64,000 nt of DNA from Actinomycetota bacterium (GCA_030840805.1 JAVEDU010000098.1:1-64000); one strand, 5' to 3'; shown: positions 7,941 through 29,274, numbered from the stretch's first letter. The notes: a model not told the origin generated them from the sequence alone. Numbers and translations: made by a program.

Positions 7941-8963
7941 TCAGGACAGAGTCGCGGACTCGATCGGCTGTACAGCGCGGTAGTAGAGGTCGAGGCAGAG
8001 CAGGAGCTCGGTGCGAGCCACCCCGGTGAGGGTACGTATCTCCGTGTCGACGAGACGCATGACGTCCTCGGAGTTTCGGCACACGGCCTCGACGAAGATG
8101 TCGAACCGCCCCGCGCACGCGACCACATAGGTGACCGAGGACAGCCGGGTGAGCGTCTGGGCGAGGTCGTTGATCCGGTGACCCGGGGAGACCCGGATGC
8201 CGACCCAGACCTGCATGGTGAAACCGAGGCTGCGCGGGTTGGCGATCGCGGTGATCCGGATCGTCTTCTCGGCGAGCATGCGCGTGACGCGCTTGCGCAC
8301 CTGGGACTCCGAGATGCCGAGCTCGTCGCCGACGACGCCGAACGGCAGCCGCCCGTCCGCGCTCAGCTCGGCGACGATCCGCCGGTCGGTGGCGTCCAGC
8401 GTCGGACGGGCCGTCGCGACGCCGTTCTCGCCCTTCTCCTGCGCCACGTCCCAGACCGGCTCCTGGTAGTGGAGCTGGAGGTACGGGAAGACCTCGGCGG
8501 ACCGGACGCCGGGCGCGCGGACGAACGAGGAGTCCACCACGCTGAGCAGCTCGTCGGTGTCCCGGCAGAGGACCTCGACCAGACCGTCGTACCGCCCGGT
8601 GGTGATCACCGCGTAGTCCACCGAGGGAAGCTCCACGATGGACTCGATCAGCGGCCGGATGCCGCGTGCACCATCCACATTGATCCCGATGAGGGCCGCG
8701 ACGGTGTAGCCGAGGACGGCCGGGTCGGCCACCGTCGTGATCTGGATGACGCGGCTCTCGAGCAGCTCGTTCACCCGGCGGCGGATCGTCTTCTCCGGCA
8801 CGCCCAGCTCGCGGGAGATCGCCGCGAACGACTGCCGGCCGTCGAGCTGGAGCATCCGGATCAGGGCACGGTCGAGCTCGGAGAGCTCGACCTCGCCGTT
8901 GTCGGCCCCGGCCGGGAACGAGGCGTGCAGGAAGCCGGAGACGACGTTGTCCGGACCGCGCAT
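7941..8963 (-). CDS. Double Lrp/AsnC-type transcriptional regulator
   Basis: About 340 residues containing two complete Lrp/AsnC modules in tandem. The first has helix-turn-helix LSELDRALIRMLQLDGRQSF with EKTIRRRVNELLES, then a RAM-like domain with GINVDGARG and YAVITTGRYDGLVEV. The second repeats the plan with LDATDRRIVAELSADGRLPF, then VWVGIRVSPGH and VVACAGRFDIFVEAV. Ordinary family members are about 150 residues with one module; such duplications exist in actinobacteria. The fused dimer could read asymmetric half-sites or two ligands. The start is uncertain: ATG at 8963 is chosen, with an alternative GTG at 9014. It lies between the amidohydrolase and the oxidoreductase and probably regulates this operon. 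Confidence 0.87.
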   Translation of the reverse strand: MRGPDNVVSGFLHASFPAGADNGEVELSELDRALIRMLQLDGRQSFAAISRELGVPEKTIRRRVNELLESRVIQITTVADPAVLGYTVAALIGINVDGARGIRPLIESIVELPSVDYAVITTGRYDGLVEVLCRDTDELLSVVDSSFVRAPGVRSAEVFPYLQLHYQEPVWDVAQEKGENGVATARPTLDATDRRIVAELSADGRLPFGVVGDELGISESQVRKRVTRMLAEKTIRITAIANPRSLGFTMQVWVGIRVSPGHRINDLAQTLTRLSSVTYVVACAGRFDIFVEAVCRNSEDVMRLVDTEIRTLTGVARTELLLCLDLYYRAVQPIESATLS

Positions 8964-18966: not shown

Positions 18967-19095
18967 GCCCCGGACCCCGCCGTGGCGGCCTCCGGGGCTG
19001 AGTCCACCCGGGCGACCCCGCTCAAGGGGGTCCCCGGCGATGCCGACATGAACCGAGGCAGGGCGACCGGCGCCCGCGGCCGGGGAGGCCGACTC

Positions 19096-21963
19096 ATGGC
19101 GGAGCGGGAGACGTCCGGGATCACCACCCGGCTGCTCCTCCACTATGTGCGCACGGACTCCGGTGACGAGGCCGTCGCGGAGATGCTCCGCCGGGCGGAC
19201 GTCGGCCACTCGGTCGCCGAACTCGAGGACGAGTTCGCCTGGGTCAGCTACGACACCAAGATCCGGCTCTTCGCCGCCGCGGTGGACGTGCTCGGCAACC
19301 CCGCCGCGATGTACGAGATGGGCGCGGCCGCGCTCCGGCACAGCGTCAACCCCTCCCTGCTCCTCCTGCTGCGCGCCCTCGGGTCGCCGCGACAGGTGTT
19401 CCGGCAGGTACCGCGCACCTCCCCGAAGTTCTCCGCCGCGGCGGTCATGGAGGTGCTGGAGTCCAGCGCGACCCACGCGATGGTGCGATACCTCCTGCGC
19501 CCCGGCTACACCCCGAGCCGGCTGGACTGCGCGTACACCGAGGGGCTGCTCGCGGTCGTCCCGGAGATCTTCGGCCTGCCGTCCGCCCACGTGGTGCACG
19601 ACGAGTGCCAGTCCGACGGGTTCGACGCATGCCTGTTCCACGTGACGTGGTCGCGGTGGTCCCGCCTGCCGTGGCGCCGCCGCTGGCTCCGCAGCTCGGT
19701 GGACGCCGAGATCATCGCGCTCCGTGGCCAGCTCCAGGCGCTCCAGTCCGCCGCGGCGGACCTCGCCGACAGCGACGACCTCGACGGTGTCCTCGCCCGC
19801 ATCCCCGAGCGGGCCGCGTCCGCGGTGCTCGCCCAGGGTTACCTGCTGGCGGTCGACCCGCCCAACGGCGGGCCGCCCCTGGTGCACAGCGCGGGTCTGG
19901 AGCCCGGCCGGGCCGCCGAGCTGGCGACCGCGCTGCTCGCCGGGGAGGACCTCGGTCCGGAGGCCGTCGTCACCGATGTCGCCACCAGCCGCCGTCACCA
20001 CGGGCGGCTCGCCGCGCTGTACGCGCCCGGCCACCGCGGGATGGCGGACGAACGTGAGCTGCTCGCCGCGTACGCGGGGCATGCCGCCGCCGTGCTGGAC
20101 CTGCACATGGCGGTCGAGGCGAGCCGGCACGGCGAGAGCCGGGCCCGCGCGCTGCTCGCGCTCTCCCACGAGCTCGCCGGCGCGGACGAGAGCGGCCAGG
20201 TGGCGGATCGGGTCGTCGACGCCCTGCCCGGCATCGTCGGCTGCGACAAGGCGGCGGTGCTGCTCTGGGACGCGGACAACGGGGTGCTGCGCCCGGCCGC
20301 GGCGCACGGGCTCACCCCCGACGAGGAGCAGCTGCTGTTCGCGGTCACGCTGAGCCCGTCCGACACCCCCGAGCTGATGGACCTGCTCGCCCGGCTCGAA
20401 CCGCTGGTGGTCGACCCCCGGACCGCGACCCCGGGGCTCGCGCAGCTGCTGACGACGCTGGGCATCGGCGGCGTGCTCGTCGTCCCGCTGCTCGCCGGCG
20501 GCAGCCTGCTCGGCGTCACGGTGTCCGCGTGGGGCGGCGGACCGGTGCCGACCGACCGCCTGACCGAGGCGTTGGCCCGGATGCGCGGTCTCGCCGACCA
20601 GGCGGCGACCGCGCTCCAGAAGGCCCGGCTCGTCGAGGCCGTCCGGCACCAGTCGCTGCACGACGCGCTCACCTCGCTGCCGAACCGGGTGCTGTTCGCC
20701 GACCGGCTGGAGCACGCGCTGCGCACCGCCGGCGGGTCCGGGGGCGCCGCCGTCCTGTTCTGTGACCTCGACCGGTTCAAGCAGGTCAACGACGCCCTCG
20801 GACACGCCGCGGGGGACGAGCTGCTCCGGCAGGTCGCCGCCCGGCTGCGCGGTGCGCTGCGCCCGGGTGACACCGTCGGCCGGCTGTCCGGCGACGAGTT
20901 CGCGGTGCTGCTACCGGGCGTGACCGACGAGGCCGCGGCGGACGAGGTGGCCCGGCGCGTGGTCGGGTGCTTCGACGAGCCCTTCCGGATCGAGGGCAGC
21001 CAGCTCCGCGTCACGACGAGCGTCGGCGTGGCCGTGCACGCCGGGCCGGACGGTCGCGGCGACTGGCTGCTCCGCGCGGCCGACACCGCGATGTATGTCG
21101 CGAAGCGCCGCGGCCGAAATCAGATCGCGTACGACGAGGGCGGTGTCGGCGGGGCGCTGTCGGTGGGTCCGTCGCTGGAGGAGGAGCTCGGCAAGGCGGT
21201 CGACGGCGGCCAGCTCCGGCTCGTGTTCCAGCCGGTCGTGAACGTCGCCGAGGGCCGGACCGTGGGCGCGGAGGCGCTGCTGCGGTGGGAGCACCCACGG
21301 CTCGGCCTGCTGGCGCCGGGCAGCTTCATCCCGCTCGCCGAGGAGAACGGCCTGATCGTCTCGCTGGACCTGTGGGCGCTCCGCACGGCCTGCCGGGAGG
21401 CCGCCCGATGGATGTCCGACGGCATCGGTTTCGGCCGACACGTGGCCGTCAACCTCTCCGGCCGCACGCTCGGCGAGCCCAGCCTGGTCGAGGCGGTACG
21501 GACGGCGCTGGTCGACAGTGGACTGCCGGCCGAGCAGCTCCAGCTCGAGGTCGTGGAGAGCAGGTCCCTTGTGGACCTGCCCGGAGTCGTGGACCGGCTT
21601 TCCGCGATCCGGCACCTCGGGGTCCGCGTCGCGCTGGACGACTTCGGCACCGGGTTCTCGACGCTGAGCTGGCTTCAGCGCCTGCCGGTCGACCGGATCA
21701 AGGTGGACCGCAGCTTCACCGCGATGCTGCCCGCCGACCGCGCCTCCGCGGCCCTGCTGCGCGGTGTGGTGGCGCTCGGGGCAGAGCTGGGCGTGGAGGT
21801 GGTCGCCGAGGGCGTCGAGACGCCGGAGCAGCTGGCCACGATCCGGTCGGCGGGCTGCCATCTGGTGCAGGGGTTCCTGCTGGGCCGGCCGATGCCGCCC
21901 GAGCAGCTGCGGTCCCGACTGGTCGAGGACACCCCGACCCCGTCGTCGCCGTCCGCCGTCTGA
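19096..21963 (+). CDS. Hybrid cyclic-di-GMP enzyme: V4R-like, GAF, GGDEF and EAL domains
   Basis: A 955-residue multidomain signalling protein. Residues about 5-180 form a V4R/heme-NO-like sensor ending [20 protein letters not shown] and [16 protein letters not shown], with two Cys (near 169 and 176) in the usual V4R spots. Two GAF-like regions cover about 200-500. The GGDEF domain has [20 protein letters not shown] and the active-site variant SGDEF at 598; RPGD lies five residues before it, matching the inhibitory I-site. The EAL domain has EALLRW (Glu726), [18 protein letters not shown] and AEGVETPEQ, so phosphodiesterase residues appear intact. Both synthesis and breakdown of c-di-GMP are possible. 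MAERE is chosen as start because GGGGAGG precedes it; an ATG 16 codons earlier is an alternative. Confidence 0.93.
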
Positions 21964-22138: not shown

Positions 22139-22168
22139 TTCACAACGGGACATCTCTGCCCCTACGTT
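22139..22168 (+). promoter_or_regulatory. Likely promoter of the secretion-like operon
   Basis: TTCACA (22139-22144) is followed after 18 bases by TACGTT (22163-22168, TAnnnT). It would give a leader of about 125 bases before the first small gene. That leader contains an unused AGGAGG at 22193 with no start codon in range and G/C-rich short hairpins. The 336-base gap (21964-22299) holds no convincing gene. Confidence 0.45.
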
Positions 22169-22299
22169 GTCTTCTGCACCGGCCGTCTCACAAGGAGGAT
22201 CCGGGCACAGAACGGCGCGGGCTCGACCGCACGCGCGACGCGCGGTCAGGGGAATCGGGTGCCGCCTCGCGCGGCGCCGACACAGGGGAGGTCGTGCCG

Positions 22300-22548
22300 A
22301 TGTCCATCCATACCCCCACGCTGGCATTGATCAACTGGAAGGCCATCGAGGGCGAGATCAGCGGCGCCCTCACGGTGCTCGGCCTGGCGGTCGTCGGCGT
22401 CGTGATCTGGGCGGCGGTGTCGGGCAACATCAAGAAGGTCGTGATGATCATCGGCGGTGTGGTCGGCGCGGGTGTCGTCGCCGCCCTGATCGGGCTGATC
22501 ATCAACCCAGCGCAGACGCAGAAGCTGTTCAGCGGGTTCTTCAGCTGA
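22300..22548 (+). CDS. VirB2/TrbC-like small membrane protein
   Basis: An 82-residue protein with two hydrophobic helices, GALTVLGLAVVGVVIWAAV and VVMIIGGVVGAGVVAALIGLII, joined by the basic loop SGNIKK. A small two-helix protein as first gene before VirB3-like and VirB4-like genes is the usual place and form of a VirB2/TrbC-type pilin or its Gram-positive counterpart. No long signal peptide is evident. The ATG at 22300 is nine bases after GGGGAGG, while a GTG two codons earlier is too close. The pilin role is inferred from context and topology only. Confidence 0.75.
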   Translation: MSIHTPTLALINWKAIEGEISGALTVLGLAVVGVVIWAAVSGNIKKVVMIIGGVVGAGVVAALIGLIINPAQTQKLFSGFFS

Positions 22549-22558
22549 GGCGCTGACC

Positions 22559-23056
22559 GTGCAGCCCGCCGGCACCCGGCAGCTCGTCCAGTCCGACGAC
22601 TGGATCACCAAGTTCCAGGGGACGTGGGTCTCCTCCCAGGGCAAGGCGATGTTCGTTCAGGCGCGGTACGTCGCCTGGGTCGTCTTCGCCTTCGTGTTGC
22701 CGGCGGTCATCCTGGTCGACTACGCCGTGACCGGCTCGGTGTCGTTGCTGCCGCTGACCGACGCCGCCATCGCCGTCCTGCTGACGTACGGCATCGCGAA
22801 CCTCACCAACGGCGAGGTGACGCTCGCCCATGTCGGTGTGTACCTGCTGCGCTGGGGACGGCAGGTCTCGACCCGGGTCGCCGCGCGGTTCCGGACGCCC
22901 CGGTCGGCGCGGCCACGCCGCACGACCGACCGGCTTCGCGTCCGGCTGATGCCGGCTCCCGACCGTCTGACCGAAACCGGCAGCGCCGCCGGCCCATTGC
23001 CGGGGCGTGACCTCGTGGTTGCACGGCCCGGCCCGAAACCGGGGGTTGTCCGATGA
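22559..23056 (+). CDS. VirB3/PrgI-like membrane protein
   Basis: A 165-residue protein with an N-terminal soluble part (DDWITKFQGTWVSSQGKAMF), two close hydrophobic helices (VAWVVFAFVLPAVILVDYAV; VSLLPLTDAAIAVLLTYGIA), and a basic, Pro/Arg-rich cytoplasmic tail. Actinobacterial and Gram-positive T4SS operons encode such a protein (VirB3/PrgI-like) directly before the VirB4 ATPase. It starts with GTG 10 bases after the pilin-like stop and overlaps the ATPase gene by four bases (ATGA). Assignment rests on topology and position; sequence similarity cannot be measured here. Confidence 0.68.
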   Translation: MQPAGTRQLVQSDDWITKFQGTWVSSQGKAMFVQARYVAWVVFAFVLPAVILVDYAVTGSVSLLPLTDAAIAVLLTYGIANLTNGEVTLAHVGVYLLRWGRQVSTRVAARFRTPRSARPRRTTDRLRVRLMPAPDRLTETGSAAGPLPGRDLVVARPGPKPGVVR

Positions 23057-25671
23057 GACGCAGCGGCGGCGGAACGGTCCACGAGAGGCCGGACCGGCCT
23101 ATCCCGACCACGTTTGCCCGGGAGACGACGACGCTGGCGCTGCGGGGGGTGTGTGACTTCCTCACCTGGGACGAGCGCACCGTGTTCGCCTGGTACCGCC
23201 TCGACCCACAGCGCTGGAGCTTCCTCACCACTGACGACCGGCGCGCGATCCTGTCCGAGCAGGCGACCGGGTACGGGGATCTGCTCGGGCGGCAGATGAA
23301 GCTGCGCACCACGTTCCGGCCGTACCCGGCGTATGCGTGGGCCGAGCAGATGGACTACCGGACACCGCATCCGATCGACGGCCGGGCGTTCGACGCGCTG
23401 CTCACCGAGTCGCAGCGGCTGCTCCACTCGATGGACAACAGCGAGGCCGAGCACTACCTGGGGGTGGAGGTCGGCGCGCGCGCCCCGATCGACCGGATCG
23501 CGGCGCGGCTCAAACCCGAGGCGCTGTACCACCGTTGGGGACTGCACGAGCGCACGGTGCGGCGCCTGCACGAGGACATCGCGCTGGTGGACCGCGCGGT
23601 CACGCAGTCGGTCGGCGGCCGCCGGGTCACGCCCCAGGAGCTGGACTGGCTGATCGACCGGTCCCGGGCGCTGGGCGTCCCGCCGGTCGTCCCGCCGCAG
23701 CCGGACCCGTCCGGGTTGTGGACCACCAGCGACCTGCACGCGTACACCGACGGCATCGAGATCGAGGAGCGTCCGTTCGGGCCGTACGTCGTCGTGCGGG
23801 ACCGGCGCGGCAGCCGGGACGTCGAGCGGTACGTCACGGTGCTGACCCTCGGCCGGGTCGATGCGGTGGAATGGCCGCCCCTGGACCTGCCGCTGCTGGC
23901 GGTGCCGCTGGCCTGCGGGTTCCCGGTGGAGCTGTCGATCACGGGGCAGCTGCTCACCGGCCGGGCGGTCGCGCGGAACCTCCGCCGCACCATCACCCGC
24001 ATCCACACCCAGATGGAGGACTACACCGACGCGCGGATGACGGCCCCGCCGGGCATGCACAACCGCGCCGACCACGCCCAGTCCGTCGGCGACGAGCTGG
24101 AGTCCCCTGTGGACTCGACCGCGGGGCGCTGGCGCGGCTGGGTGCGCTTCGCCGTCTCGGGGTCGAGCCCGGAGGAGGTGGCCGACCGTGCGGACCGGCT
24201 GCGGAAGGCGTTCGCCCGCCGGCACGTCCCGGTCGTCCGCGAACCGCAGTGTCGTGAGCTGGTAGCCGAGTTCATCCCGCACGAGCCGGTGGCCTACGGG
24301 TCGTACGTGCGGCAGTGGCCGGCCCGGATGTTCGCGGCCACGCTCCCGCAGGTCACCAGCTCGATCGGTGACCGGCGCGGCTTCGTCATCGGTCACACCG
24401 TGATCGGTCCACGTCGACCGGTCATGATGGACCCGAACTACGGGCCCATGGAGCTGTCCGCCCCCGGCCTGTGCCCGGTGATCGCCGGCCTCGGCGGCGG
24501 CAAGTCCTTCCTGCTGGGACTGATCGCCGAGCAGGCCGCGACCGCGGGGATCGGGACGACGATCCTCGACCCGTCGCAGGGCGCGTTCGCCCGGCTGACC
24601 CAGCTCGACCATCTCCGCCGGGGCTCGCGGCTGCTCGACCTCGCGTACGGCAAGCCGGGTTCGATGTCGCCGTGGGCCGTCATCGCCGACCCCCGCCGGG
24701 ACCACTTCCCGCCGGGGCAGCCCGGCGAGGAGCAGTGGAACGACGCCCGCGCCGAGGCCGCGCGGGAGCGGATGGTGCTCGCCGAGGACGTCTGCCGCGC
24801 GCTGCTGCCGCCGGACCTGGCCGACTCCGGTGACGTCCGGCTGATGCTCACCGACGCCGTCAGCGCGGTGGGGGGCATCCCCGGGTCGAGCCTGTTCGAC
24901 GTCATCGACGAGCTGGGCAAGCTCGGCGATCTCGCGTCCCGCGTCGGACGGCATCTGCGGAACCTCGCCGACTACCCGCGCGCCCGGCTGTTCTTCGATC
25001 CCGGCCGGGTGGAGCCGATCGACGAGGCGCTCGTCGTCATCACGTTCTCCGGGTTGGTGATCCCGCAGCTCGGCACCGACCGGATGCAGTGGACGACCGA
25101 GGAGCAGATCGCCGTCCCGCTGCTGAACCTCGCCACCGCGCTGACGTTCCGGCGGGTCGCCCGCAAGCCCAAGGACGAGCGGCATCTCGCGATCTTCGAC
25201 GAGCTGGGCATCCTCGAACAGTTCAGCTCGTTCCGTGCGGTGTTCACCCGGTTCTCCCGGGACTCCCGGAAGCTGAACACGTTCGTCGGCAAGGCGGACC
25301 AGACGCCGCACGGGATCGCCCGGCTGGGGCTGCTGCCGTTCGTCGGGTCGGCCTTCGTCGGCGTCGCCGACTCCGACGACGCGGCGATGGGGTCGCTGGA
25401 CATCCTGAAGGTGAAGCCCGATCCGTCCTATGCGGACGTCATCGCCCGGCTGCCGAGGCCCAAGCCGTCGCGCCCGCTGCCGTACCGGGACTTCATCTAC
25501 CGCGACGCCACCGGGGTCGTGGACCGCATCCGGGTCCGGGCGGAACACCGGCCCGGGCTTGCCGAGCTCCTCGACACCACGCCGCGGCCCGTCGAGGGCG
25601 GCGGCCGGGCGGTCTCCGCTGTGGAGGGTGGGCCGCCCTCGCTGGCTGCGGTCGTGGCGGAGGGGGCATGA
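23053..25671 (+). CDS. VirB4-like secretion ATPase
   Basis: An 872-residue ATPase of the VirB4/TraE/ConE group. The N-terminal ~430 residues form the region preceding the ATPase core, with the typical RLHEDIALVDRAV and the motif SGSSPEEVADRADRLRKAF. The C-terminal core has a Walker A sequence AGLGGGKS around residues 478-485 and a Walker B sequence HLAIFDELGIL around 712-720. A later segment, NTFVGKADQTPHG, is at the place of the conserved Q of related motors. It would drive substrate or pilus-subunit movement at the membrane. It overlaps both neighbours by four bases. This is the most certain member of the operon. Confidence 0.88.
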   Translation: MRRSGGGTVHERPDRPIPTTFARETTTLALRGVCDFLTWDERTVFAWYRLDPQRWSFLTTDDRRAILSEQATGYGDLLGRQMKLRTTFRPYPAYAWAEQMDYRTPHPIDGRAFDALLTESQRLLHSMDNSEAEHYLGVEVGARAPIDRIAARLKPEALYHRWGLHERTVRRLHEDIALVDRAVTQSVGGRRVTPQELDWLIDRSRALGVPPVVPPQPDPSGLWTTSDLHAYTDGIEIEERPFGPYVVVRDRRGSRDVERYVTVLTLGRVDAVEWPPLDLPLLAVPLACGFPVELSITGQLLTGRAVARNLRRTITRIHTQMEDYTDARMTAPPGMHNRADHAQSVGDELESPVDSTAGRWRGWVRFAVSGSSPEEVADRADRLRKAFARRHVPVVREPQCRELVAEFIPHEPVAYGSYVRQWPARMFAATLPQVTSSIGDRRGFVIGHTVIGPRRPVMMDPNYGPMELSAPGLCPVIAGLGGGKSFLLGLIAEQAATAGIGTTILDPSQGAFARLTQLDHLRRGSRLLDLAYGKPGSMSPWAVIADPRRDHFPPGQPGEEQWNDARAEAARERMVLAEDVCRALLPPDLADSGDVRLMLTDAVSAVGGIPGSSLFDVIDELGKLGDLASRVGRHLRNLADYPRARLFFDPGRVEPIDEALVVITFSGLVIPQLGTDRMQWTTEEQIAVPLLNLATALTFRRVARKPKDERHLAIFDELGILEQFSSFRAVFTRFSRDSRKLNTFVGKADQTPHGIARLGLLPFVGSAFVGVADSDDAAMGSLDILKVKPDPSYADVIARLPRPKPSRPLPYRDFIYRDATGVVDRIRVRAEHRPGLAELLDTTPRPVEGGGRAVSAVEGGPPSLAAVVAEGA

Positions 25672-27557
25672 CGCTCCCGCGGCGGCTGACGGTCGTCGCG
25701 CTCGCGGCCCTCGCCGCCGTCCTGCTGTGCGGTGGGGCGGCGGACGCGCTCGGCCCGGACTGCAAGGAGGCCCCGGCCGCCACCGCCCCCGGCAACCCGA
25801 TCGGCGGCAACCCGGCGCAGCGGCCGACCGGGGAGGACCCGTTCGCGGACAAGGCGACGACCACCGTGTACCGGGAGTACGGGCTCGCCGTCCCGAGCTG
25901 GAGCACCTACGACCTCGGCTGCGGCGCCGCCCTGTCGCGGGACCCCACCGCGGTCGTCACCACGTTCTTCGCCAACGGGCTCGAGGCGATGCCCACGATG
26001 GCCGGCGGCACGACGATGTCCGCACTCGCGCACGGGGTGCTCGGCTGGACCGGGCTGGAGGCCGTCGACCGCGCGCTCGCCGGCATCTCGGCCGATCTCC
26101 GGGACGCGGTGTGGTCCGACGCGGTCACCGTCGTCGGGATGCTGATCCTGGTGTGGTGGATGATCCAGCTGCTCCGCGGCAACCTGCGGCGGCTCACCAC
26201 CGCGACGGTGTACGTGGTCGCCGCGGTGGCGTTCTTCGCCCTGCTGATCGGGTACCCGCAGAAGGCGGGGGCGTTCTTCGACGACGTCATGCGGTCCGCC
26301 GTCGGCACCGCGTACGGCGTACCGGCCGGTGCCGGTGCGGACGCCGGCAGCGGTGCCGCGGGGAGAGCCGCCGCCGACGTGCTGGTCGCGGACCTGTACC
26401 ACTCCGCGAGCTACCGGACCTGGTGCTGGGGAATGGTCGGCACCGACTCGGCCGTCGGCCGCGAGTACTGTCCACAGCTCTGGAAGGCCACGCATTTCAG
26501 CTACGCGGAGACCAACCTGCCGGCCAACCGGCAGGGCGATCTGCGTGATCGCAAGGCCGCGGACTTCGAGCAGGCCGCCGAGCGGCTGCAGTCGGCCCAC
26601 CCGGGGTCCTACCAAATCCTCCAAGGCAAGGACTGGGTCGCCCGCAGCGCCGCGGCCGGGCTGTCGGCGGTGCTGTGGGTGCTGCTGTCGCTGTACCCGA
26701 TCTGGGGCCTCGGGATGGTGTTCGGCTCGCTGCTGCTGTTCCGGCTGACCGTGGCACTCGCCCCCGCGCTCGGCCCGGTCTTCCTGCACCCGGCGATGGC
26801 ACGGTCGGCGAAGGCGATGGGCAACGTGCTGTTCGGCGGCGCGGTGAACACGATCGTCTTCACGTTCGCCACCGCCGTGTACCTGCGGCTCGCGGCGTCC
26901 CTCACCGGCGACGGCACGGGGATGGACCTGCCGTTGCGGCTCGCCCTGTTGCTGATCCTCACGGTGGCGCTGTGGGTGCTGACCAAGCCGTGGCGGCGCC
27001 TCACCGGGCTCGGCAAGGACCTCACCCGGGTCATCGAGCGGGTCGGGTACCGGGTGAGCGGCGACGGCATCCGCGACGGTGCCGTGGCGGCGGCCCGGGG
27101 CGCCGCCACGGTCGGCGCGGCGGCCTCCGGCGCCGGCTCGGTGATGACGGCGATGACCCTCGCGGAGATGGCCGACGCACCGGACGGCGCGACGCGGTTC
27201 GCGCCCACCCCGCCCGTGCCGCGCGGCGGGAGTGGCGTGGTGTTCGTCCCGTCCACCCGGGAGCCCGCCGTCGTGCCCGCCGCGCTGCCGGCCGGCTCCG
27301 GCGGGGGCCCGGCCGCGGCCGGGCTCGCGGAGTACCACGCGGAACGCGGTGGCCGGGCCGACCCGGTGGCGCCGCCGCGCGGCGGGGGCCTCCGGCCGGC
27401 CGTGACGACGCTGGCCGCGGACGGCTCGGAGGTCTACGCGATCTACTCGGCGAGCGACCACTCGATGCACGCGAACTTCCTCGCCGAGGAGCAGCCCGCC
27501 GCGCCGGAGGAGCCGGCCGAGAACGTCGGCCCGACGGTCTACCGCCGGGGGTCGTGA
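25668..27557 (+). CDS. VirB6/TrbL-like polytopic membrane protein
   Basis: A 629-residue protein with a signal peptide (MTLPRRLTVVALAALAAVLL, cleavage near ADALG), an extracytoplasmic region, then about six membrane helices between residues 150 and 450, including VTVVGMLILVWWMIQLL, VYVVAAVAFFALLIGY, LSAVLWVLLSLYPIWGLG and FGGAVNTIVFTFATAVYL. A 170-residue Ala/Pro/Gly-rich cytoplasmic tail follows. Actinobacterial secretion clusters have such a VirB6/TrbL-type channel protein after VirB4. Paired Cys in the exterior loop (TWCWGMVG, REYCPQ) may form a disulfide. It overlaps the ATPase gene (ATGA) and the next gene (TGATG). Confidence 0.75.
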   Translation: MTLPRRLTVVALAALAAVLLCGGAADALGPDCKEAPAATAPGNPIGGNPAQRPTGEDPFADKATTTVYREYGLAVPSWSTYDLGCGAALSRDPTAVVTTFFANGLEAMPTMAGGTTMSALAHGVLGWTGLEAVDRALAGISADLRDAVWSDAVTVVGMLILVWWMIQLLRGNLRRLTTATVYVVAAVAFFALLIGYPQKAGAFFDDVMRSAVGTAYGVPAGAGADAGSGAAGRAAADVLVADLYHSASYRTWCWGMVGTDSAVGREYCPQLWKATHFSYAETNLPANRQGDLRDRKAADFEQAAERLQSAHPGSYQILQGKDWVARSAAAGLSAVLWVLLSLYPIWGLGMVFGSLLLFRLTVALAPALGPVFLHPAMARSAKAMGNVLFGGAVNTIVFTFATAVYLRLAASLTGDGTGMDLPLRLALLLILTVALWVLTKPWRRLTGLGKDLTRVIERVGYRVSGDGIRDGAVAAARGAATVGAAASGAGSVMTAMTLAEMADAPDGATRFAPTPPVPRGGSGVVFVPSTREPAVVPAALPAGSGGGPAAAGLAEYHAERGGRADPVAPPRGGGLRPAVTTLAADGSEVYAIYSASDHSMHANFLAEEQPAAPEEPAENVGPTVYRRGS

Positions 27558-28114
27558 TGGGGCTGCCCGTGTTCCACGGCCGGGTCCTCGGCGGCGCCCC
27601 ACGCCCGCGGTTCCTGGTGCAGGCCGCCGCGGTGGTCGCAATCCTCGTCGTCGTCCTCGTGGTTCGACCGGGCACCCACCGGGAGCCGGTGCCGGGCCAG
27701 GGTGGGCCCGCGACGTCCCCGTCCACTGTGGAGACCTCGGCGCCGCCCGCGGACGAGGGCGGCGTGTACGTGCCGGTCCCCGGTTCCGCGGCCGCCACGG
27801 GCCGAGCGGTCCGGGTCGCGGAGTCGTTCGCGACCGCCTGGGCACGGCCGACCCTGCCGGCCGCCACCTGGTGGCGCGGCGTGTCCGCGTACGCCGAACC
27901 GGGGTACGCGGCGCTGCTGCGCACCGTCGATCCGGCCAACGTGCCGGCCGACCGGGTCACCGGCGCGGGGAGCACGGTCAGTACCGCCGACGGGCTGGTC
28001 GTGGTGGACGTCCCGACCGATGCCGGGACCTGCCGCGTCACCGTCGCCGACACGGGCGGAACAGGAGAGTGGAAGGTCTCGACCCACAGCTGGCGACCGG
28101 GGGGCCGGAGATGA
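27557..28114 (+). CDS. VirB8/TcpC-like bitopic protein
   Basis: A 185-residue protein with a short basic N-terminus, one membrane helix (FLVQAAAVVAILVVVLVV), a Pro/Thr/Ser-rich linker, and a C-terminal domain of about 110 residues (VRVAESFATAWARPTLPAAT, WWRGVSAYAEPGYAALLRTV, then beta-rich GLVVVDVPTDAGTCRVTV). This is the plan of VirB8/TcpC-like NTF2-fold proteins that scaffold T4SS channels. No sequence signature proves it. It overlaps the previous gene by one base and the next by four. Confidence 0.68.
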   Translation: MGLPVFHGRVLGGAPRPRFLVQAAAVVAILVVVLVVRPGTHREPVPGQGGPATSPSTVETSAPPADEGGVYVPVPGSAAATGRAVRVAESFATAWARPTLPAATWWRGVSAYAEPGYAALLRTVDPANVPADRVTGAGSTVSTADGLVVVDVPTDAGTCRVTVADTGGTGEWKVSTHSWRPGGRR

Positions 28115-29274
28115 GCCGAGGCAGGATCGTCGCGGTGGTCGCCGGTGGCTGTGCCGCCGCGCTGCTGGTGGTGGGAGTGGGTGTGGGCGCGACGGCGCTC
28201 ATGCTGTTCGGCGGCGGGTCGACGGCCCTGACCGGCGGCGACTGCGGGTACGACGTCCCGGCGGGCGGCCCGGAGATCCTCGCGGCCACCGGCGCGGTGC
28301 CCGGGTCCCCGTCGCCCACCCCGTCGGCGACGGCGTCGGCCCCGGCGCGGATCGAGCCGATCGGGCAGTGGGCGACCGAGCAGGTCGGCAACGCGGCCGT
28401 CGTCGTCGCGGTCGGCCGCGAGCTCGGCGTACCGCCGCGGGGCTGGGTGGTGGCGGTGGCGACCGCGATGCAGGAGTCCGGCCTGCGGAACCTCCCCGGC
28501 GGTGACCGTGACTCGATCGGGCTCCTGCAACAGCGGCCGTCGATGGGCTGGGGCACCCCGGAGCAGCTCGGCAGCCCGGAGTACCAGGCCCGGCAGTTCT
28601 ACGCGCGCCTGCTGCGCATCGACGGCTGGGCGTCGATGCGGCTCACCGATGCCGCCCAGAGCGTGCAGCGCTCGGCCACGCCGGAGGCGTACCAGCGCTG
28701 GGAGACGGAGGCCGAGGCCGTCGTCGCCGGAGTGCTCGGCGTCGCGTCGGTGGACCTCCTCGGCGGCGGGTTCCCGGCCGCGCCGTGCGGGGTGGCGGCC
28801 CTGTCCGCGGCTGTCGTCCCGGCGGGGACCTGGACGACGCCGGTGCCGGCGGCGATCGGCTCGGGGTTCCGCACGCCGGCCCGGCCCGGCCACGACGGCG
28901 TGGACTTCGTGGCCGCGCGGTACACCCCGGTCCACGCCGCCAGCAGCGGCACCGTCCTCACCGTGCTGTGCAATGCGAGCACCGGGGACTGCGACCGCGA
29001 CGGCGGGATGTCCGTACGGGGCTGCGGCTGGTATGTCGAGATCCTGCACGCCGACGACGTCGTGACGAGGTACTGCCATCTCGTGCGCCGGCCCGAGGTG
29101 TCGGTCGGAGACACCGTGGCGGGCGGCCAGGTGCTCGGGTTCGTCGGGTCGTCGGGCAACTCCAGCGGCCCGCACCTGCACTTCGAGGTGCATCTCGGGA
29201 CCACCGCGACCTCGGCCAACGCCGTCGACCCGGTGCCGTTCCTGGCCCGGATGGGGGTACCGCTCGGCGCCTGA
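28111..29274 (+). CDS. VirB1-like cell-wall hydrolase: transglycosylase plus M23 peptidase
   Basis: A 387-residue anchored or exported wall enzyme. An N-terminal hydrophobic helix (IVAVVAGGCAAALLVVGVGV) precedes a Ser/Pro/Thr linker. A transglycosylase-like domain follows, with catalytic Glu122 in ATAMQESGLRN and SIGLLQQRPSMGWG. The C-terminal M23 peptidase has metal motif HDGVD (His261, Asp265) and HLHFE (His355, His357), both intact. Such bifunctional enzymes open peptidoglycan for Gram-positive T4SS. Four Cys in the peptidase region (LCNASTGDC, RGCGW, RYCHL) may form disulfides. It ends the six-gene run; a weak G/C hairpin follows before the formaldehyde dehydrogenase. Confidence 0.9.
   Translation: MSRGRIVAVVAGGCAAALLVVGVGVGATALMLFGGGSTALTGGDCGYDVPAGGPEILAATGAVPGSPSPTPSATASAPARIEPIGQWATEQVGNAAVVVAVGRELGVPPRGWVVAVATAMQESGLRNLPGGDRDSIGLLQQRPSMGWGTPEQLGSPEYQARQFYARLLRIDGWASMRLTDAAQSVQRSATPEAYQRWETEAEAVVAGVLGVASVDLLGGGFPAAPCGVAALSAAVVPAGTWTTPVPAAIGSGFRTPARPGHDGVDFVAARYTPVHAASSGTVLTVLCNASTGDCDRDGGMSVRGCGWYVEILHADDVVTRYCHLVRRPEVSVGDTVAGGQVLGFVGSSGNSSGPHLHFEVHLGTTATSANAVDPVPFLARMGVPLGA

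What the first reader, a model, noticed from the sequence alone, without database searches (positions are those of the whole stretch)
22139..29274. Six-gene type IV secretion-like operon without coupling protein or relaxase
Tiny overlaps (ATGA, TGATG) tie most of these six genes together: VirB2-, VirB3-, VirB4-, VirB6-, VirB8-like and a VirB1-like transglycosylase/M23 protein. No VirD4/TraG, relaxase, VirB11, integrase or replication gene is within 20 kb on either side, and base composition matches the chromosome. This looks like a resident export or DNA/protein delivery machine rather than a transferable element. Its cargo is unknown; the long disordered tail of the VirB6-like protein may be involved.
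Basis: partly seen in the sequence, partly recalled or inferred. Interest (0 to 1): 0.75.

Follow-up and report, generated by a model that had tools for sequence, protein, structure and literature searches.

The report
Motorless type IV secretion operon, chromosomal
Six joined genes on this actinomycete chromosome encode the core of a DNA/protein-transfer machine (a type IV secretion system) without the usual loading motor or DNA-nicking enzyme beside it; the same gene set is fixed on the chromosomes of several related families, and also sits near an FtsK-type DNA pump on linear plasmids, so it looks like a resident version of a plasmid-transfer apparatus whose cargo is still unknown.

Summary
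Window 22294-29274 carries six co-directional genes: a VirB2-sized two-helix peptide, a VirB3/PrgI-position protein, VirB4, VirB6, VirB8 and a two-domain wall hydrolase. VirB4 is identified by sequence; VirB6 and VirB8 by predicted fold. VirB2 and VirB3 rest on size, position and family conservation. No coupling protein, relaxase, integrase or FtsK gene was found in the window; the neighbours are metabolic genes. Two VirD4/TraG + MobF-relaxase modules exist on other contigs, so 'without' is true locally, not genome-wide.

The same six-gene order occurs at about 91 other chromosomal-type loci (Micromonosporaceae, Glycomycetaceae, Kineosporiaceae, Nocardioides and others), all-or-none by family and with locked synteny in Micromonosporaceae. 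None has an FtsK, TraG or MobF neighbour. Ten of ten linear plasmids examined with the set have an FtsK-type motor nearby. Half of 16 operon-bearing genomes have no clear VirD4/TraG. I conclude this is a resident T4SS scaffold related to linear-plasmid transfer modules, without a dedicated motor. A distant Streptomyces cousin (cmdA-F) affects sporulation and chromosome segregation. Cargo is undetermined; a DNA-linked role with chromosomal FtsK is my preferred but unproven reading.

The parts
22294..22548 (+). VirB2-position gene (82-84 aa, two predicted helices; start GTG 22294 or ATG 22300)
   Evidence: Size and position only; same-sized two-helix gene precedes the VirB3-position gene at 84 other loci; no profile match to the window protein
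22559..23056 (+). VirB3/PrgI-position protein (165 aa)
   Evidence: Profile of 84 other loci without the window matches it, E 6.9e-9; no Pfam VirB3/PrgI match
23053..25671 (+). VirB4 ATPase (872 aa; Walker A AGLGGGKS 478-485, Walker B LAIFDE 712-717, RDSRK 736-740)
   Evidence: Pfam AAA_10 2.2e-12; TcpF 7.6e-14; best solved relative VirB4 4AG5; motif residues invariant in family
25668..27557 (+). VirB6 (629 aa; helical membrane core, disordered tail 481-629 with a YAIY motif near residue 590)
   Evidence: Leave-out profile E 2.9e-61; AlphaFold core matches R388 TrwI/VirB6, Z 14.0 over 251-264 residues
27557..28114 (+). VirB8/TcpC-type protein (185 aa; one helix plus NTF2-like domain 78-181; alternative start GTG 27554)
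   Evidence: Leave-out profile E 8.1e-32; AlphaFold domain matches TraM(pIP501) Z 11.6, 3ub1 Z 11.5, VirB8 Z 10-11
28111..29274 (+). VirB1-like wall hydrolase (387 aa): transglycosylase-like domain (AMQESGL 119-125) + M23 endopeptidase (GHDGVD 260-265, HLHFEVH 355-361)
   Evidence: Pfam Peptidase_M23 7.6e-23; leave-out profile E 2.3e-121; motifs

Best explanation
The six genes encode a minimal monoderm-type (MPF_FA/FATA-like) T4SS: a membrane platform (VirB3-position protein, VirB4 ATPase, VirB6, VirB8), a small pilin-like peptide and a secreted two-domain wall hydrolase that opens the peptidoglycan. It is the chromosomal, motorless form of a gene set that on linear actinomycete plasmids sits near an FtsK/SpoIIIE-type DNA pump. 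Shown: gene identities for four of six genes, fixed order across families, absence of a linked motor or relaxase. Inferred: that VirB4 powers assembly or operation of an envelope-spanning channel, and that any motor acts in trans or is not needed. For substrate, I think DNA handling in partnership with the cell's own FtsK (for example at cross-walls) is the single most likely mode, about 0.35; VirD4-independent protein or pilus export about 0.3; use by visiting TraG+MobF elements about 0.15. The confidence below is for the resident motorless T4SS scaffold, not for any one substrate.
For: VirB4 by sequence; VirB6 and VirB8 by predicted fold; leave-out profiles for B3, B6, B8 and the hydrolase. 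All-or-none by family in the order: 20/20 genomes in six families, 0/38 in nine others. folB/folK/folP beside the operon at 64 loci. FtsK nearby on 10/10 linear plasmids, at 0/91 chromosomal-type loci. 8/16 operon-bearing genomes have no clear VirD4/TraG, including a one-contig 9.2 Mb genome. The own genome has one VirB4 and only the ordinary chromosomal FtsK. The cmd operon of Streptomyces, distantly related through CmdB, is needed for sporulation and chromosome segregation but not for SLP2 transfer (PMC2782261).
Against: No experiment on this operon or its close relatives. The window protein is on a long branch (1.7) with modest support (SH-aLRT 80) next to the chromosomal clade, and two same-family genomes lack a close copy, so long residence in this lineage is not proven. 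The Cmd link rests on the VirB4 ATPase half; CmdC and CmdD gave no match to the window's families, and Cmd, unlike the window, carries a TraG-like protein. The genome is a draft in 111 contigs, so a larger element cannot be fully excluded.
Confidence: 0.72

Rival explanations
1. VirD4-independent exporter or pilus/surface-appendage assembler, working like Ptl, ComB or Bartonella Trw: substrates reach the wall side by Sec/Tat, or the pilin-like peptide is itself the product.
For: No coupling protein linked at any chromosomal-type locus and none clear in 8/16 genomes; T4SSs without VirD4 that secrete toxin, take up DNA or make pili are known (PMC12857230).
Against: Known examples are Gram-negative; the VirB2-like peptide is unproven as a pilin; I saw no cargo candidate recurring next to the operon across families.
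Confidence: 0.3
2. Helper mating apparatus: the chromosomal operon supplies the channel for visiting elements that carry only TraG and a MobF relaxase, such as those on contigs C84 and C98.
For: The genome has two TraG+MobF modules and only one VirB4, that of the operon.
Against: Half of the operon-bearing genomes have no clear TraG. Both modules end at contig ends, so their own VirB4 could be unassembled; a helper role alone would hardly fix the operon across families.
Confidence: 0.15
3. A decayed or captured fragment of a conjugative linear plasmid or ICE, recently inserted and without function.
For: Same six genes on linear plasmids; absent as a close copy from two same-family genomes; long branch.
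Against: All six frames intact; Walker A/B and hydrolase motifs kept; no integrase or remnant genes around it; the tree groups it with the chromosomal rather than the plasmid clade, weakly.
Confidence: 0.1

Closest known systems
Six-gene operons on linear plasmids (Streptomyces NZ_CP029542, NZ_CP050694, NZ_CP109057, pSSFR2; Rhodococcus pNSL1, pN1, NZ_CP014942; Gordonia pSMJS1.2; Nonomuraea NZ_CP107854; Pseudonocardia NZ_CP080522)
   Same: Same genes in the same order; VirB4 27-33% identical
   Different: Plasmids have an FtsK/SpoIIIE gene nearby, usually with ParA; hydrolase is NlpC/P60 (C40) in several, split in Gordonia. The window has no FtsK and an M23 hydrolase
cmdABCDEF (SCO4126-4131), Streptomyces coelicolor chromosome (PMC2782261)
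   Same: Chromosomal six-gene membrane operon with a VirB4-type ATPase; CmdB aligns with the C-terminal half of the VirB4 family (E 1.4e-6)
   Different: Different gene order, CmdB only ~475 aa, TraG-like CmdA at the end; CmdC and CmdD show no detectable match
Monoderm conjugation T4SS (pCW3 Tcp, pIP501 Tra, pCF10 Prg)
   Same: VirB4 (TcpF), VirB6, VirB8 (TcpC/TraM/PrgL fold) and a two-domain wall hydrolase
   Different: Those carry a coupling protein, relaxase and accessory genes; none is linked here
VirD4-less T4SSs: Bordetella Ptl, Helicobacter ComB, Bartonella Trw, Brucella VirB
   Same: VirB4-based machine without a coupling protein
   Different: Gram-negative with outer-membrane parts VirB7/9/10; not seen here
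Micromonospora lupini MiLup08_42651 'VirB4-like protein' (PMC4182475)
   Same: Annotated VirB4 in Micromonospora, flanked by unknown proteins; probably the same locus type (sequence not compared)
   Different: Reported as a single gene, not as a six-gene system

Membership tests
Monoderm T4SS (MPF_FA/FATA type) | VirB4 ATPase with Walker A/B | tested here: met
Monoderm T4SS (MPF_FA/FATA type) | VirB6-type polytopic channel protein | tested here: met
   AlphaFold core; Foldseek top 9 rows and VIA top 3 rows are R388 VirB6 chains
Monoderm T4SS (MPF_FA/FATA type) | VirB8/TcpC-type protein | tested here: met
   VIA top 21 rows are T4SS VirB8-family proteins, Z 9.4-11.6; Foldseek E-values weak
Monoderm T4SS (MPF_FA/FATA type) | VirB3/PrgI protein and VirB2-like pilin | tested here: inconclusive
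   Size, position and family conservation only; no Pfam match
Monoderm T4SS (MPF_FA/FATA type) | VirB1-like wall hydrolase | tested here: met
   Peptidase_M23 and transglycosylase-like motif
Conjugative element (ICE or plasmid) | Linked coupling protein | tested here: not met
   None in the 64 kb window; TraG only on contigs C84 and C98
Conjugative element (ICE or plasmid) | Linked relaxase | tested here: not met
   No MobF in the window; MobF-type proteins seen on C84 and C98. Other relaxase families were not searched by profile beyond the Pfam scans of neighbours
Conjugative element (ICE or plasmid) | Linked integrase or replication gene | tested here: not met
   40 flanking genes scanned with Pfam, none found; some small genes not scanned
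Linear-plasmid six-gene + FtsK module | Six genes in the same order | tested here: met
Linear-plasmid six-gene + FtsK module | Nearby FtsK/SpoIIIE motor | tested here: not met
   own genome has only the chromosomal FtsK
Cmd system (SCO4126-4131) | VirB4-type ATPase related to CmdB | tested here: met
   hhalign probability 90.5%, E 1.4e-6
Cmd system (SCO4126-4131) | Same gene order, short CmdB, TraG-like CmdA | tested here: not met
VirD4-less T4SS acting as exporter or uptake machine | Demonstrated export, uptake or pilus | not testable with these tools
   Needs mutants and microscopy

The most novel reading that the evidence does not exclude
A T4SS scaffold fixed in several actinomycete families has become a cellular housekeeping machine that works with chromosomal FtsK to move or manage the cell's own DNA across septa or between hyphal compartments: a domesticated conjugation apparatus used for development rather than for horizontal transfer.
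Probability: 0.2. Interest if true: 0.85.

Novelty: new variant of a known kind. Interest (0 to 1): 0.56.

Why it matters
T4SSs in monoderm bacteria are known mainly as conjugation machines. A motorless six-gene version, fixed on the chromosomes of whole actinomycete families with locked synteny, implies a cell-level job that does not need a dedicated coupling protein. Because the same set occurs near an FtsK-type pump on linear plasmids, it offers a natural comparison between transfer and resident forms, and makes testable whether T4SS parts take part in actinomycete development, export or DNA handling. In the open-access papers I searched I found only a single-gene mention of this type (PMC4182475) and the distant Cmd operon (PMC2782261).

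Tried and rejected
Close relatives by peptide patterns in genome contigs: none; the alignment-based scan worked. Orthology to cmdA-F: first looked for among AAA_10 hits in f34 genomes, which proved to be another locus type (L176); the cmd locus was then found through the Walker A motif read from the paper's primers (21 genomes, all of one genus, presumably Streptomyces). The motif matches K90 of CmdB. SLP2 itself (NC_003904) is not in the plasmid collection, so the SLP2 transfer genes were not compared directly. Overlap of C84/C98 ends: both end in the same TraG repeat, so what lies upstream of TraG stays unknown. Pfam for the VirB3, VirB6 and VirB8 families: no usable match, TrbL/VirB6 only once at 0.01. 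Promoter and terminator scan: nothing found. PDB sequence profiles for VirB6 and VirB8: nothing.

Full report
WHAT IS THERE. Six genes run in one direction from 22294 (or 22300) to 29274. The first two are 10 bp apart; the next four junctions are ATGA, ATGA, GTGATG and ATGA. Coding scores are high for all six. GC is 73.7% against 72.3% for the window; GC3 is 0.90-0.96 against 0.95 +/- 0.02 for the other long genes.

IDENTITY OF THE PARTS. VirB4 (872 aa) matches Pfam AAA_10 at 2.2e-12 and TcpF at 7.6e-14. A 13-sequence family profile finds the solved VirB4 4AG5 best among PDB sequences, E 4.5e-5, ahead of HerA and TrwB. Walker A (K484, S485) and Walker B (D716, E717) are invariant in the family. 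The VirB8-like protein has no Pfam match. Its AlphaFold model (mean pLDDT 82, domain mostly above 90) gives weak Foldseek E-values, but in the VIA-align second look the top 21 rows are T4SS VirB8-family proteins: TraM of pIP501 Z 11.6, 3ub1 Z 11.5, Brucella VirB8 Z 11.2, DotI, TraE and others, above unrelated NTF2-like proteins at 9.4 and below. The VirB6-like model is fairly confident for the helical core and below pLDDT 50 for residues 481-629. The nine best Foldseek rows and the three best VIA rows are chains of VirB6 (TrwI) of the R388 machine, Z 13.5-14.0 over 251-264 residues. The tool warns that helical models can reach Z 13-14 by common arrangement, but these rows stand clear of the next at 10.6 and are one biologically relevant family. 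The last gene has an M23 domain (7.6e-23) and a transglycosylase-like motif AMQESGL. The VirB3-position protein matches the profile of 84 other loci at 6.9e-9; the VirB2-position peptide does not match by sequence. These two names therefore rest on place and size.

SURROUNDINGS. Forty flanking genes scanned with Pfam are transporters, dehydrogenases, regulators, a GGDEF-EAL protein, Rieske/Fer2 oxygenase parts and phenylacetate-type genes (two gave no match). There are four ordinary tRNAs. FtsK, TraG and MobF searches give no hit in the window. The contig is 66,264 bp, of which the window is the first 64,000; the last 2.3 kb were searched with the same three queries (locus L006) but not annotated.

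REST OF THE GENOME. Only one VirB4 or AAA_10 protein over cut-off exists: this one. TraG occurs twice, at the ends of contigs C84 and C98, each followed by a large MobF-type protein (the TrwC domain is recognised in the C98 copy, and the C84 copy is homologous to it). Both contigs end in the same TraG sequence, so what precedes TraG is not known. The only match to the plasmid-type FtsK profile at E 1e-10 is the usual chromosomal FtsK on C64 (that it is the housekeeping FtsK is my reading of its size and uniform presence across genomes).

RELATIVES. In 61 genomes of the order, strong VirB4 matches (E below 1e-100) are all-or-none by family: 20 of 20 genomes in f6, f8, f10, f12, f14 and f15, and 0 of 38 in f2, f3, f4, f5, f7, f9, f11, f13 and f16. 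In the window's own family f1 only the window genome has it; two others have a distant VirB4 of another type. A named scan gave 80 loci from Kineosporia, Actinoplanes, Dactylosporangium, Micromonospora, Salinispora, Catellatospora, Stackebrandtia, Nocardioides and others. The six-gene order recurs. Leave-out profiles match the window proteins: B3 6.9e-9, B6 2.9e-61, B8 8.1e-32, hydrolase 2.3e-121. In 64 loci, nearly all Micromonosporaceae, folB, folK and folP are beside the operon; in f10/f12 it lies between hisG and infC/rplT. This is vertical inheritance in those families. The 91 chromosomal-type loci may include some genomes twice, under a number and a name.

PLASMID FORM. Against 72,556 plasmids, VirB4 relatives occur on 91, all from seven actinomycete genera. 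Ten that I opened are all linear and carry the same genes in order (Gordonia has the hydrolase split in two). All ten have an FtsK/SpoIIIE-type gene within the stretch: close in nine, further downstream and weaker in Pseudonocardia, and annotated 'hypothetical' but similar in sequence to the others in pSSFR2. None of the 91 chromosomal-type loci has one, nor TraG nor MobF, within the flanks held, which are up to 10 kb and shorter at contig ends. In the VirB4 tree the plasmid copies lie in a clade (SH-aLRT 99) that also holds f6 and f14 chromosomes and one Streptomyces contig. The window falls with the Micromonosporaceae, Kineosporia and Nocardioides chromosomes (support 80, end branch 1.7), so its exact place is unsure.

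IS A COUPLING PROTEIN NEEDED? Of 16 operon-bearing genomes, eight have a strong TraG match (E below 1e-19) and eight do not, including the one-contig 9.2 Mb genome G013. The marginal matches (E 1e-4 to 4e-3) were not followed up. So VirD4 in trans cannot be obligatory, unless a divergent one was missed.

CMD. The cmd operon of Streptomyces coelicolor affects aerial growth, septation and chromosome segregation, and its deletion does not affect SLP2 transfer (PMC2782261). I located cmd in 21 genomes of one genus by its Walker A motif and read five loci. CmdB aligns with the ATPase half of the window VirB4 family. CmdE shows a weak 25-column match to the VirB8 family. CmdC and CmdD show none. CmdA is TraG-like (E 1.9e-18; Pfam below cut-off). 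Cmd is therefore a distant cousin with a different layout, not the same system; its phenotype is a lead only.

MECHANISM. Shown: parts, order, conservation, absence of a linked motor and relaxase. Inferred from family knowledge: VirB3/4/6/8 form the inner-membrane platform; the hydrolase opens the wall; VirB4 supplies energy. Not shown: the substrate. T4SSs without VirD4 can export toxin, take up DNA or make pili (PMC12857230). FtsK-type pumps move double-stranded plasmid DNA in Streptomyces (PMC12857230), and relaxase-less linear mycobacterial plasmids with T4SS genes have been interpreted that way (PMC12803027). The nearby FtsK gene on ten linear plasmids suggests that this six-gene scaffold works with such a pump there. 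On chromosomes the pump could be FtsK in trans, or the scaffold could have another use. I give 0.35, 0.3 and 0.15 to the FtsK-linked, exporter and helper readings.

TAIL. The VirB6 tail is disordered but holds, near its end, a short conserved motif, Y-x-[IV]-Y followed mostly by RP: 40 of 76 family tails match my pattern, and the window has YAIYS. It may be a docking site; not tested.

VERDICT. A real T4SS-type operon. Its novelty is the family-wide chromosomal, motorless form and its link to linear-plasmid FtsK modules. I rate it a new variant of a known kind, interest 0.56.

Noticed in passing
Own genome contigs C84 (L004:1-7313) and C98 (L005:12958-19955): Two related TraG + large MobF-type protein modules, both ending in the same TraG sequence at contig ends; possibly two mobilizable or conjugative elements. 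In the C84 copy Pfam does not recognise the TrwC domain.
   Followed up: partly
window 27420-27450 (VirB6 tail) and family: A short motif Y-x-[IV]-Y-R-P lies near the C-terminus of otherwise disordered VirB6 tails in many families; the window has YAIYS.
   Followed up: partly
L218:10248-11858 and homologues (CmdA): CmdA of the Streptomyces cmd operon is TraG/VirD4-like by sequence; the passages of the 2009 paper I read call it only a membrane protein.
   Followed up: partly
L176, L177, L178 (f34 genomes): Another chromosomal VirB4 locus type with VirB2-, VirB3- and VirB6-position genes, flanked by DnaJ-like genes and, divergently, what look like CpaE/TadA-type pilus genes (by eye).
   Followed up: no
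L052, L053, L054: A distant VirB4 operon type (25% identical to the window) in the window's own family and in f10; TraG-like matches lie beside it in L053 and L054.
   Followed up: no
window 18982-21963: A GAF-GGDEF-EAL (cyclic-di-GMP) protein immediately upstream of the operon on the same strand.
   Followed up: no
window 7941-8963: A regulator with two complete Lrp/AsnC units in tandem in one protein.
   Followed up: no
L045, L046, L050 (f6, f14 chromosomes): Chromosomal copies that fall in the plasmid VirB4 clade, suggesting at least one separate move between plasmid and chromosome.
   Followed up: no
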